Made by a program: the position numbers and the translations under genes. Shown here piece after piece: positions 42,333 to 45,314 of a stretch of DNA of 64,000 nucleotides. The DNA is from Ogataea parapolymorpha DL-1 (Eukaryota; Ascomycota; Pichiomycetes; Pichiales; Pichiaceae). The number at the start of each line of letters is the position of its first letter. The first letter of the stretch is position 1. The DNA lies in assembly GCF_000187245.1 (NCBI RefSeq), contig NC_027866.1, positions 860,411 to 924,410 of the forward strand, written 5' to 3'. Under the pieces are notes generated by a model. The model worked only from the letters and a program-made list of their open reading frames with translations. It was not told where the DNA came from and ran no database searches.

Positions 42333-42788
42333 CTACCACCCTTCGAAGCCGAGCTCGTCCTCATAGTTGAGGAAGTCTCCTTCTGCGTCGTCGCCGCGCT
42401 CCTCATTACCTTCAGCGTCGCTTCCGTTGTCGTCGTCAGCGTCTGCCGTTAGTCCTTTTCGCTGTCGGTACTTCTCTCTTCTGGCTTCGCTCTCCAAAAG
42501 CTCGTACTGACGGTATTTGGCAAGATATATTTTCAGTGTCTCCGCGTAGTTCTCAAACCCGAGAGAGTACATCGAAAACAATATGTCCTCCCCATTGAGC
42601 GTTTTCCTCTTTTCCAAAGAACATTTTTCAGCTGCTTGGGAGGTGATGAAGGAGATAAATTCAGACACACACTCTTGCATGCACTGTTTGGCCTCTTTCG
42701 AGAGCTTTCCGTGAGGTGGAAGGGCCTGTCGCATCACGCGGCCAACGTTGGCTATGGGCAGCCAGCGGTCCTGTTCGCGGATATCCAT
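42333..42788 (-). CDS. HAP3: CCAAT-binding factor subunit Hap3 (NF-YB)
   Basis: The 151-residue protein has the NF-YB histone fold at about residues 5-95: [78 protein letters not shown] polar, acidic tail follows. Hap3 pairs with Hap5 and Hap2 to bind CCAAT and drive respiratory genes; SDH4 in this window is a plausible target class. Confidence 0.96.
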
Positions 42789-43032: not shown

Positions 43033-44454
43033 CTATTCATTATCAATCGCCAAATCTATCCCACGCGAGTGCTCTATCACATACTTCCCGTTCACCATGT
43101 CGTTTCCGTCGGCCCGCTGCTCTGCCTCCTCTTTGGTCTTGCTGATCCCGGCCTCCAAATGCCGCCGCACAATTCTCTCCCGAATCAGCTCGGGCCGCGC
43201 GACGACCATCCAGCTCGCGTCGGCAATTTGCGAGATCTTACTCCACGGCTCCTTGTCCAAACAAACGTAGTTGCCTTCGAGAATAACGATCTCGTTCTCA
43301 GGACGAATCACGATCGAATCTTCGACTGGATCCTTGATTTTGTGGTCAAAGCTCGGCGCATATATTTCCTCCTCGGGATGCTCTCTAATCCGCCTCACTA
43401 AATCAACCAGTCCCTCAGCGTTGAACGTAAAATCTGCACCCCGTCGAGCAACCATGGTTTCTGGATCGTCCATCTGCAACAATTCTTTCATGTAGTAGTG
43501 GAACCCGTCCTGGGGGACCACAACGCCAATCCGCTTGCCAAAGCGCTCATTCAGACGGTTAATAACCCTCTCTGTGATCAAAGACTTGCCACTGCCCGGC
43601 GCACCGCACACGGCAACAATAACACGCTGTCCTGAGCATTTCTGCTCATGAAGACGAACCAAAATATCAACTAGATGATCGATGTCCTTGCCGCTCACGT
43701 GCCGAACCATTTCAGCGTCTCCTGCATCCAGGAACAGCGGCTTCTTTTTATACTCTTCACAGGTATTCTGCGCTCCGCGAACTTTACCCCAGACACCATC
43801 AGTTTTCGCGGTCTTATCAACCCCGAGGTTGCTGACGTAAGCGCGCAACTCGAGCCACCACTTGAGTTTTTCCTTGTAGCTGATGGTGACGAGGCCGGAG
43901 GTGCTGGGTATCACAAAGATAGTGCAGCCCTCAAGCTCGAGCTGTTGCCGTCCCCAGCCAAAGTTCTTCAAGGCGTCTTTGTTTCCCAACGTCTTGCACA
44001 CCTGTTCCCAGATTCCCTTCCCCACGAAGCAGGCCACCGCAGGCTGGTTGCTCCTAAGTTCGGCGCACAGTCTCGGTACGTTGTGGGCCATTTCCGTTTT
44101 AGTCAGTTGCCCCGCGTTCTGCGTGGGGCGCAGCACCAGATCCGTGAACCCGATGCCGTATTGGAGCAGATCCCAGTCGTCCTTGGCGGCGCAGGGGTGA
44201 GAGTGTACCCCGTTAGTCACGGTGCTCAATATTCCCGACTCGTTAAATAATTTCCAAAACAGGTTAGTGGGGTGAGCGTAATGATGCTGCAAGGACGAGG
44301 AGCGGATCGAGGGGTTGTAGCCGATGAACACCACGGCTAGGCCCGGGCGAAGTGAAGGGTTCAGGTCGGGCAGTTTAGGCGACACAGGACTGGGTCTTTT
44401 ACTCCGGATTACACGTTTTTGCTGTTTTTCTTCATATCCATATTTTTTCAACAT
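43033..44454 (-). CDS. Fusion of TDG/Mug-type DNA glycosylase and Yfh7-type P-loop kinase
   Basis: One open frame of 473 residues joins two domains (ATG at 44454; the frame is open further up). Residues about 38-208 are Mug/TDG-like: AVVFIGYNPSIRSS with catalytic-type N47, HYAHPTNLFWKLFNESGI, GIGFTDLVLRPT, and VIPSTSGLVTISYKEKLKWW. A linker of about 40 residues follows. Residues about 250-473 are a kinase like Yfh7/uridine-kinase relatives: Walker A GAPGSGKS (284-291), PQDGFHYYMKELLQMDDPET, RRGADFTFNAEGL, APSFDHKIKDP and ILEGNYV. TDG/Mug enzymes remove U or T opposite G. Yfh7 substrates are unknown. An internal ATG (M249, 43710) could give a kinase-only product. Confidence 0.8.
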   Translation of the reverse strand: MLKKYGYEEKQQKRVIRSKRPSPVSPKLPDLNPSLRPGLAVVFIGYNPSIRSSSLQHHYAHPTNLFWKLFNESGILSTVTNGVHSHPCAAKDDWDLLQYGIGFTDLVLRPTQNAGQLTKTEMAHNVPRLCAELRSNQPAVACFVGKGIWEQVCKTLGNKDALKNFGWGRQQLELEGCTIFVIPSTSGLVTISYKEKLKWWLELRAYVSNLGVDKTAKTDGVWGKVRGAQNTCEEYKKKPLFLDAGDAEMVRHVSGKDIDHLVDILVRLHEQKCSGQRVIVAVCGAPGSGKSLITERVINRLNERFGKRIGVVVPQDGFHYYMKELLQMDDPETMVARRGADFTFNAEGLVDLVRRIREHPEEEIYAPSFDHKIKDPVEDSIVIRPENEIVILEGNYVCLDKEPWSKISQIADASWMVVARPELIRERIVRRHLEAGISKTKEEAEQRADGNDMVNGKYVIEHSRGIDLAIDNE

Positions 44455-44492
44455 AGAAAAAAAAAAAAGTTTTAGCCATTTTTGGGCAACAT

Positions 44493-45314
44493 TTATGGGC
44501 AGCAATAACCACCGTCAATGATGAGGTCAGCGCCGGTGGTGAAGGTTGAGGCGTCCGACGCAAAGTACAGGTATGCGCCCACAAGCTCTTGAGGAAGCCC
44601 CTCTCTGCCCATTGGGATCAACGTGCACCACTTGACTTTCTCCTCGTTAGGCACATCTTTCGAGATAGGGGTGACAATGTACCCTGGAGAGATCGTATTG
44701 ACACGGGCGAAGCCGACCCATTCCATTGCCAGACTCTTGGCAATCTGGATGCACGCTGCCTTGCTGGCGTTGTAAGCCGCTTGCCACACGTGAGCCGTGA
44801 CAATATGGGCTGCCTGTGAGGTGGTGATGATAAAGGAACCCTTGCCGTGCTTCTTGAAAATTGGACCCACGCACTTGGCGCAGTAGTACACGCCGTCCAA
44901 ATTCGTGTTCATGATTGCCCGGTATTTTTCCAGCGACGCATCGATCACAGGCACCGATTGGGAGCCAATCCCCGCATTTGCAACAAAAATGTGAATCGTG
45001 CCAAAGTCAGACTCAATGGCATCGATCGTGGCCTTGACCTGGTCAAAGTCGCCGACTGCGCACTTGTAAGCCTTGGCACGGATCCCGTACGTCTTGGACA
45101 GCCTCTCAGCTTCGTGGTCAGCGTTTGTGCTGTTGTACCAGATGGCCACGTCTGCGCCTGCCTGAGCATACGCTTCTGCCACAGCCAGACCAATTCCCGT
45201 CGAGCCACCAGTAATGCTGGCCACCTTGCCTTTCAGGGAGAACAGGCTGAAAACGTTGGAAGGCAATTGAGGAGCCTCGGTTGGTAGTTTGTCGTAATTT
45301 CCGATAATGTTCAT
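44493..45314 (-). CDS. SDR carbonyl/sorbose reductase-like
   Basis: The 274-residue short-chain dehydrogenase has GKVASITGGSTGIGLAVAEA, the middle ANAGIG, an active site with QAAYNASK (Tyr-x-x-x-Lys), VNTISPGYIVTPI and a closing IIDGGYCCP. It resembles Sou1/Sou2 sorbose reductases and yeast NADPH carbonyl reductases. It may reduce sugar or dicarbonyl substrates. It is divergent from the fructosyl-amine oxidase gene across 138 bp. Confidence 0.75.
   Translation of the reverse strand: MNIIGNYDKLPTEAPQLPSNVFSLFSLKGKVASITGGSTGIGLAVAEAYAQAGADVAIWYNSTNADHEAERLSKTYGIRAKAYKCAVGDFDQVKATIDAIESDFGTIHIFVANAGIGSQSVPVIDASLEKYRAIMNTNLDGVYYCAKCVGPIFKKHGKGSFIITTSQAAHIVTAHVWQAAYNASKAACIQIAKSLAMEWVGFARVNTISPGYIVTPISKDVPNEEKVKWCTLIPMGREGLPQELVGAYLYFASDASTFTTGADLIIDGGYCCP

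What the first reader, a model, noticed from the sequence alone, without database searches (positions are those of the whole stretch)
43033..44454. DNA glycosylase joined to a Yfh7-type kinase in one reading frame
One uninterrupted 473-codon frame encodes a TDG/Mug-like domain (GYNPS with N47, HPTNLFWKLF, IPSTSG) followed by a P-loop kinase with GAPGSGKS and the Yfh7-like PQDGFHYYMKEL and RRGADFTFNAEGL. S. cerevisiae lacks TDG and Yfh7 stands alone there. A repair enzyme fused to a kinase of unknown substrate suggests coupling of base excision to nucleoside or nucleotide salvage. An alternative is two products from one locus, since M249 aligns with the natural Yfh7 start.
Basis: partly seen in the sequence, partly recalled or inferred. 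Interest (0 to 1): 0.75.

Follow-up and report, generated by a model that had tools for sequence, protein, structure and literature searches.

The report
Yeast DNA-repair enzyme fused to kinase
In Ogataea yeasts a DNA-repair enzyme that removes wrong bases and a small-molecule kinase, seen as separate proteins in other fungi, are encoded as one two-part protein; the joining is real and shared by several species, but what the partnership is for is not known.

Summary
One 473-codon frame (43033-44454, minus strand) encodes a TDG/Mug-type glycosylase (about residues 30-206), a linker, and a P-loop kinase (249-473). Proteins of four named Ogataea species have the same joined form; of 256 related proteins held, only these four match both halves. 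The linker is 16% identical to O. philodendri's, against 73% and 61% for the domains, and is predicted disordered. Catalytic motifs are largely kept, but the fused kinases lack an Arg beside DGFH that 29 of 30 stand-alone ones have. No second gene as close was found in the genome for either half.

Corrections: the kinase is a compact PRK09270-type enzyme without Yfh7's insertions. Bacterial relatives sit in sugar/polyol clusters (8 of 10 read; 2 of 21 control stretches), so a sugar or polyol substrate is likelier than a nucleoside, and coupling to base salvage is weak. A separate kinase product from M249 is disfavoured by overlapping out-of-frame ATGs.

Verdict: genuine domain combination, so far seen only in Ogataea; purpose unknown.

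The parts
43033..44454 (-). whole joined frame, 473 codons plus stop
   Evidence: same architecture in P0001-P0004
43837..44367 (-). TDG/Mug-type uracil-DNA glycosylase domain, about residues 30-206
44314..44316 (-). N47, aligned with the Asn of GINPG in TDG and Mug (the catalytic N140 of TDG, whose N140A mutants are in the PDB titles)
   Evidence: alignments; Asn in 31 of 31 stand-alone and 5 of 5 fused sequences
43711..43836 (-). linker, residues 207-248, low confidence in the model (213-247 under pLDDT 50)
43036..43710 (-). compact PRK09270-type P-loop kinase domain, residues 249-473; M249 is its first codon
43585..43605 (-). Walker A GAPGSGK, residues 284-290
43498..43509 (-). DGFH, residues 316-319
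   Evidence: D316 in 30 of 30 stand-alone kinases and 5 of 5 fused
43267..43278 (-). EGNY, residues 393-396 (Walker B region)
43797..43799 (-). out-of-frame ATG within the linker-coding stretch (34 codons, stops after M249)
   Evidence: mRNA offset 655, stop at 757; M249 is at 744
43725..43727 (-). second out-of-frame ATG within the linker-coding stretch, 10 codons, stops after M249
   Evidence: mRNA offset 727, stop at 757
44493..45314 (-). upstream same-strand neighbour: SDR whose best solved relatives are carbonyl reductases and NADP-dependent mannitol dehydrogenases; ends 38 bp before the fusion's ATG

Best explanation
It is a real two-domain gene of Ogataea yeasts: a TDG/Mug (S. pombe Thp1-type) glycosylase joined by a disordered, fast-evolving linker to a compact PRK09270-type kinase. 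Shown: the frame; the same joined protein in four named Ogataea species; most conserved motif residues kept in both halves; two confidently modelled domains; no other gene as close to either half found in the genome. Inferred: it is made as one protein; it arose when tandem THP1 and kinase genes lost the stop between them, the former intergenic stretch becoming the linker and M249 being the kinase's old start. Each half most likely keeps an ancestral type of job: G:T/G:U base removal, and phosphorylation of a sugar- or polyol-type metabolite, perhaps with a changed substrate because a conserved Arg and Ala are replaced. The joining then mainly ties two enzymes into one expression unit and one cell location; the chemistry of one half does not feed the other.
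For: Frame and domains. Conservation: O. polymorpha, O. angusta, O. haglerorum and O. philodendri proteins align over the full length and all four pass both Pfam cut-offs. Linker (residues 207-249 as counted): 91, 72, 70 and 16% identity to those four, with gaps at 0, 0, 1 and 12 of 43 positions, against 94, 95, 95, 73% (glycosylase 35-206) and 92, 92, 88, 61% (kinase 250-473). Linker codon usage in the reading frame (0.258 bits per codon) is like the domains' (0.176, 0.223); the other two linker frames give -0.002 and -1.802, the downstream intergenic stretch -0.322, -0.912, -0.449. AF2 mean pLDDT 87.3; 213-247 is the only stretch under 50; pTM 0.54, so no fixed orientation is predicted. Kept in 5 of 5 fused sequences: G45, N47, P48, HHYAH, IGFTD, GKGIWE; R277, the P-loop, DG-H, RRGA-FTF, EGNY, RRH. 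Copies. Polarity: 252 of 256 held relatives match one half only. Kinase context: sugar/polyol genes beside 8 of 10 bacterial relatives read, against 2 of 21 control stretches (Fisher p 2e-4). A published table lists the yggC/At1g03030 family as a predicted 'Sugar/polyol kinase', work in progress (PMC3223725, one passage seen).
Against: No transcript or protein evidence for a full-length product. No DNA from the other Ogataea species was available, so selection on the linker and former adjacency of the genes are untested. Fused kinases depart from stand-alone ones near the active site: Met for Arg at 322, three residues after DGFH (Arg in 29 of 30 stand-alone, Leu in P0223), Met for Ala at 334 (30 of 30), Leu or Ser for Thr at 292 (27 of 30), so activity or substrate may have changed. 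In the glycosylase Ser replaces the Gly after N47-P48 in 5 of 5 (Gly in 30 of 31 stand-alone). The bacterial kinases whose context I read are only 29.7-36.5% identical, so the substrate class is a lead. Trees leave the fused clade's sister unresolved. Retention of the fusion could itself be a sign of functional coupling.
Confidence: 0.58

Rival explanations
1. Two products from one locus: full-length protein plus a kinase-only protein from M249, by an internal promoter or leaky scanning.
For: M249 lies at a usual distance before the P-loop for a kinase start, and an in-frame Met lies within one column of it in all 5 fused proteins. M249 has G at -3, while M1 has T at -3. There is one TATAAA-like hexamer at codon 235, 42 nt before M249.
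Against: Two ATGs in another frame (mRNA 655 and 727) open short frames that end at 757, beyond M249 (744). A transcript that includes them would be decoyed, so a clean kinase mRNA would have to start in the few bases between 727 and 744. Leaky scanning would have to pass 5 further ATGs between M1 and M249. T at -3 is not unusual: 7 of 33 long window ORFs with mechanical starts have it. The TATA-like hexamer falls in the linker, whose protein sequence O. philodendri does not share. Whether the decoy ATGs exist in other species is unknown (no DNA).
Confidence: 0.13
2. Functional coupling of repair to metabolism (the first reader's idea, or a variant in which the kinase acts on a repair by-product or regulates the glycosylase).
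For: The joined form is kept in the window and in all 4 relatives found, with most motif residues intact in both halves. YFH7 is listed among hits of an S. cerevisiae minisatellite-stability screen (PMC3618361, one table passage seen).
Against: The glycosylase yields a free base and an abasic site; kinases of this fold phosphorylate hydroxyls of sugars, nucleosides or pantothenate (established knowledge). Context of the bacterial relatives read is mostly sugar catabolism. A review table lists no TDG for S. cerevisiae (PMC8620282 passage), yet YFH7 is there, so the kinase family does not need TDG. The linker is disordered and pTM is low, so there is no sign of a channel.
Confidence: 0.15
3. Passive fusion with no benefit: a neutral loss of a stop codon fixed in an Ogataea ancestor.
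For: Linker nearly unconserved (16% identity to O. philodendri); no other lineage shows it among the 256 held proteins; the two functions look unrelated.
Against: Kept through the divergence of the window's species and O. philodendri with both halves joined; no separate copy of either half found in the window's genome.
Confidence: 0.25
4. Artefact: sequencing error or assembly joint hiding a stop.
For: None found.
Against: Proteins of four other species carry the same joined form; linker codon usage is coding-like.
Confidence: 0.01

Closest known systems
S. pombe Thp1 / human TDG / E. coli Mug (UDG superfamily family 2)
   Different: Carries a kinase at its C-terminus; Ser instead of Gly after N-P. 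The other 120 glycosylases held lack the kinase
S. cerevisiae Yfh7 (PDB 2ga8, 2gaa)
   Different: Yfh7 has 359 residues in the PDB record, with long stretches between the matched blocks; its PDB title speaks of a circular permutation. The Ogataea domain is a compact 225-residue form and is fused
Bacterial PRK09270-type kinases (E. coli YggC; 3c8u, deposited as fructokinase / putative fructose transport system kinase)
   Different: Score is under the curated cut-off of 227 bits; 8 of 10 bacterial relatives read lie in sugar/polyol gene neighbourhoods
Stand-alone fungal kinases annotated 'Phosphoribulokinase/uridine kinase', e.g. Candida viswanathii P0005
   Same: 49% identity over 89% of the kinase half; most conserved columns agree
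   Different: No glycosylase in the protein; Arg at the column of M322 and Ala at that of M334

Membership tests
TDG/Mug (UDG family 2) | Catalytic Asn in motif 1, G-x-N-P | tested here: met
   G45, N47, P48 in 5 of 5 fused and 31 of 31 stand-alone sequences; aligned to TDG/Mug GINPG
TDG/Mug (UDG family 2) | Gly closing motif 1 (GINPG) | tested here: not met
   Ser in 5 of 5 fused; Gly in 30 of 31 stand-alone; the exception, unnamed P0121, also has Ser
TDG/Mug (UDG family 2) | Second motif near the C-end (PNPSG / PSSSA type) | tested here: met
   IPSTSG 182-187 aligned with PNPSG of Mug and PSSSA of TDG; P183 and T185-V189 nearly invariant in the 10-row alignment. Alignment A2 did not align this stretch in the 31 stand-alone rows
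TDG/Mug (UDG family 2) | Fold | tested here: met
TDG/Mug (UDG family 2) | Excision of T or U opposite G | not testable with these tools
   needs an enzyme assay
PRK09270-type P-loop kinase | Walker A, conserved Asp (DGFH), EGNY, RRH | tested here: met
   kept in 5 of 5 fused
PRK09270-type P-loop kinase | Other near-invariant columns of stand-alone fungal kinases (T292, R322, A334) | tested here: not met
   L/S, M and M in the fused proteins; stand-alone T 27, R 29, A 30 of 30
PRK09270-type P-loop kinase | Curated NCBIfam cut-off of NF006743 and sister models | tested here: not met
   154 bits against 227; the four other fungal kinases scanned also fall short (135-174 bits)
Yfh7 proper | Long insertions / 359-residue form | tested here: not met
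   225 residues; matched blocks spread over residues 2-353 of Yfh7
Nucleoside (uridine) kinase | Nucleoside as substrate | not testable with these tools
   udk model only 29.5 bits (cut-off 220.3); context of bacterial relatives mostly sugar catabolism
True gene fusion | Joined frame conserved between species | tested here: met
   P0001-P0004 as proteins; their DNA was not seen
True gene fusion | Single full-length transcript and protein | not testable with these tools
   no RNA or proteomic data at hand

The most novel reading that the evidence does not exclude
The glycosylase half carries a metabolic kinase to chromatin (its N-terminus is basic, 9 K/R against 3 D/E in residues 1-34), so that a sugar/polyol-phosphate signal or an ATP-dependent step acts directly on base excision, or the kinase, with its altered Arg and Ala, phosphorylates a sugar-type product of repair. 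This would be an unrecorded link between base-excision repair and sugar metabolism in methylotrophic yeasts.
Probability: 0.1. Interest if true: 0.75.

Novelty: new variant of a known kind. Interest (0 to 1): 0.4.

Why it matters
Gene fusions that survive speciation are natural hints of a shared pathway, place or dosage. One partner here is a well-studied repair enzyme for which a review table shows no S. cerevisiae counterpart; the other belongs to a widespread kinase family for which my searches showed no tested substrate. Ogataea polymorpha and its relatives are laboratory and industrial yeasts (general knowledge), so 'does joining matter?' can be put to a direct split-gene test, and the kinase's bacterial neighbours suggest which substrates to try first.

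Tried and rejected
Rejected: assembly or sequencing error. Looked for and not found: a second copy of either half in the genome. NF006743 gave the fusion (157 bits), then 30.2, 17 and 16.1 bits elsewhere. PF03167 gave only the fusion and an Ung-type gene. PF00485 gave six places, one of them the fusion; of the other five I read and scanned three ORFs (L010, L013 and the partial L011). All three hit uridine-kinase models best, but L013 is nearly tied (28.4 bits against 27.0 for PRK09270.1-5), so it is a distant cousin. The two C6 places were not translated. These searches ignore introns and score only the best candidates.

Considered and dropped: an intron in the linker. The only match to the five 5' splice hexamers tried is at codon 457, and no TACTAAC is present. 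ATG depletion before M249 as a sign of leaky scanning: 6 ATGs against 9.6 expected, 7.3% of 2000 simulations as low. SDR neighbours as a mark of the kinase family: by my reading 4 of 10 kinase neighbourhoods and 4 of 21 control stretches hold an 'SDR family oxidoreductase', so this does not discriminate. Candida viswanathii has both halves as separate proteins (P0005, P0180), with longest contigs of 0.97 and 2.24 Mb; these may be different assemblies, so it does not prove that the genes are unlinked there.

Limits of counts. One search found 345 proteins and listed 120 (only 7995 candidates scored); one search found 201 and listed 120; one search listed all 43. The 256 proteins are those listed. 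Other Pichiales genera were not examined one by one, so 'only in Ogataea' means only in this search. Trees used 42 of 132 stand-alone kinases and 34 of 120 stand-alone glycosylases, picked by me; alignment A2 used 30 and 31 and did not align the stand-alone glycosylases beyond about residue 178, so says nothing on that end and the AF2 model had no stand-alone rows there. The 10 plasmid neighbourhoods are 10 of 70 records with a match (40 listed), picked by me; two are Phyllobacterium and one is shorter (8.3 kb). The 21 control stretches of 12.6 kb come from 7 of those 10 plasmids and were scored by eye. Strict rule: a product name that gives a sugar or carbohydrate transporter, sugar kinase, sugar isomerase/epimerase, transaldolase, transketolase or mannitol dehydrogenase. 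Misses: Streptomyces and Paracoccus (only glucose 1-dehydrogenase and a TRAP transporter). Control hits: one third each. A lenient count was 9 of 10 against 5 of 21 (p 0.001).

Literature searches that gave nothing on this fusion: 'thymine DNA glycosylase' + 'Ogataea' 0 papers; 'Thp1' + 'Saccharomycotina' + 'glycosylase' 0; 'Ogataea parapolymorpha' + 'domain fusion' 0; broader glycosylase/fusion/Hansenula terms, listings only: 3 of 3 and the best 15 of 2,758 seen, none on this. Papers of which I saw passages: PMC3223725, PMC8620282, PMC4372426, PMC5490237, PMC3618361, PMC7090016; the last, and PMC4372426 and PMC5490237, added nothing. Listings only: apart from those papers.

Full report
What is there. 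The minus strand from 44454 to 43033 carries one ATG-to-stop frame of 473 codons. Pfam places a UDG-superfamily domain at residues 37-203 (E 4.5e-14) and a PRK/uridine-kinase domain at 279-431 (E 3.5e-5). NCBIfam names the halves more closely: mug (TIGR00584) at 38-204 and the PRK09270 kinase group at 263-472, all below their curated cut-offs; the four other fungal kinases and two other glycosylases that I scanned fall short too. Among solved structures the N-half matches E. coli Mug and human TDG. The C-half matches S. cerevisiae Yfh7 (98.6 bits) and 3c8u (79.7 bits), then far weaker pantothenate and uridine-cytidine kinases.

Is it real? A protein search returns four clusters that align over the full length: O. 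polymorpha (93%), O. angusta (91%), O. haglerorum (89%) and O. philodendri (61%). All four have both Pfam domains over the cut-offs. After these the score drops from 659 to 202 bits. I held 256 listed proteins from three searches; 124 match the glycosylase, 136 the kinase, and 4 match both, namely these clusters. The window's genome has 8.87 Mb in 7 contigs, which from memory fits O. parapolymorpha DL-1; I did not test the name.

Are both halves likely active? I compared 31 stand-alone glycosylases and 30 stand-alone kinases with the 5 fused proteins at columns where at least 85% of stand-alone proteins agree. Kept in 5 of 5: N47 and its G-x-N-P, HHYAH, IGFTD, GKGIWE; the P-loop, DG-H, RRGA-FTF, EGNY and RRH. 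Departures shared by the fused proteins: Ser for Gly after N47-P48, Pro for Cys 110, Gln for Glu 116, Met or Ile for Lys 122, Cys for Val 142 in the glycosylase; Leu or Ser for Thr 292, Met for Arg 322, Met for Ala 334, Ile for Leu 356, Met for Phe 416 in the kinase. Position 459 is Val in four of five (Ile in 28 of 30 stand-alone), and position 65 is Gln in one of five. R322 lies three residues after DGFH; only P0223 of the 30 stand-alone kinases also lacks the Arg. So both active sites look largely preserved, but the kinase's substrate or rate may have changed. The last part of the glycosylase was not compared in that alignment; its PSTSG motif is nearly invariant in a 10-row alignment. The genome shows one TDG/Mug-type hit (this one) beside an Ung-type gene. 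One strong PRK09270-type hit was found (this one) beside other PRK-fold kinases, one of which scores weakly with a PRK09270 model.

One product or two? M249 lies 35 residues before the P-loop, and 24 of 29 stand-alone kinases start 30-45 residues before theirs. All 5 fused proteins have a Met within one column of it. That fits a fusion in which the kinase's own start was kept inside the frame. For a separate kinase product the leader is awkward: ATGs at mRNA offsets 655 and 727 are in another frame and terminate at 757, past M249 at 744; before them lie ATGs at 0, 13, 19 and 363. M1 has T at -3, but 7 of 33 long ORFs in the window share that. If the transcript starts upstream of -25, an ATG there opens a 15-codon frame that overlaps M1, so the start of the mRNA is worth mapping. 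The upstream SDR gene ends only 38 bp before M1.

What does the kinase do? Relatives on plasmids (70 records; the ten rows I opened are 29.7-36.5% identical) let me look at neighbours. Of 10 neighbourhoods, 8 hold sugar transporters, sugar kinases or isomerases, transaldolase, transketolase or mannitol dehydrogenase: Phyllobacterium twice, Palleronia, Tsukamurella, E. coli yggC, Deinococcus, Arthrobacter and Bartonella. Streptomyces and Paracoccus do not by the strict rule. Of 21 stretches elsewhere on 7 of these plasmids, 2 meet the rule (p 2e-4). A published comparative-genomics table lists yggC/At1g03030 as a predicted 'Sugar/polyol kinase' (PMC3223725, passage), and 3c8u is deposited as a fructokinase. 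In the window the gene just upstream is an SDR whose best solved relatives are carbonyl reductases, then mannitol dehydrogenases. A Diaporthe protein (P0120) joins a kinase of this family to an SDR 41% identical to the window's SDR; it is 1 of 256 held proteins with such an SDR. That is suggestive, but SDRs are common and my plasmid control shows no excess of them. I conclude that a sugar- or polyol-type substrate is more likely than a nucleoside. Glycosylases of this type release free bases (established chemistry; Thp1's substrates: PMC8620282, passage), and a free base is no substrate for either kind of kinase.

How it most likely works. One protein carries a mismatch glycosylase and a metabolite kinase on a flexible tether. 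Each acts on its own substrate; joining gives shared expression and location. It probably arose by read-through of tandem genes in an Ogataea ancestor (inferred; no unfused neighbour pair was seen). In the glycosylase tree the fused clade groups with two unnamed stand-alone proteins on long branches (P0121, P0128), and the tool warns that such joins may be false. In the kinase tree the fused clade is well separated (100) with no resolved sister. So the stand-alone state looks ancestral, but the date of the fusion is open.

Novelty. Both families are known; the combination did not turn up in the papers I searched, though the proteins are in public databases as hypothetical proteins. I rate it a new variant of a known kind. 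The most novel reading, a metabolic kinase recruited to base-excision repair, is not excluded but has no direct support beyond the conservation of the fusion and one screen listing of YFH7 for minisatellite stability (PMC3618361).

Noticed in passing
44493-45314 (-) and P0120: The SDR gene 38 bp upstream of the fusion is 41% identical to the C-half of a Diaporthe protein whose N-half is a kinase of the same family: a possible recurrent kinase-SDR pairing in fungi, or merged gene models.
   Followed up: partly
44477-44492 (-): Two ATGs lie between the SDR stop and M1 (at -38 and -25); the second opens a 15-codon frame overlapping M1. The leader also has a run of 12 T that ends two bases before M1.
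   Followed up: partly
42333-42788 (-): Downstream neighbour is a histone-fold CBF/NF-Y type protein (Pfam PF00808), from memory HAP3-like.
   Followed up: no
P0163: A protein labelled as from an Asgard archaeon MAG groups with Candida viswanathii's glycosylase on a short branch: probably yeast contamination in that MAG.
   Followed up: no
P0121 and P0223: Unnamed stand-alone proteins that share odd features with the fusion: P0121 (glycosylase, 219 aa) has the GYNPS motif, P0223 (kinase, 217 aa) lacks the Arg after DGFH. Their source organism could be the closest unfused relative.
   Followed up: no
PMC3618361 table: YFH7 is listed among candidate genes of a minisatellite-stability screen in S. 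cerevisiae, a faint hint of a genome-stability role for this kinase family.
   Followed up: no
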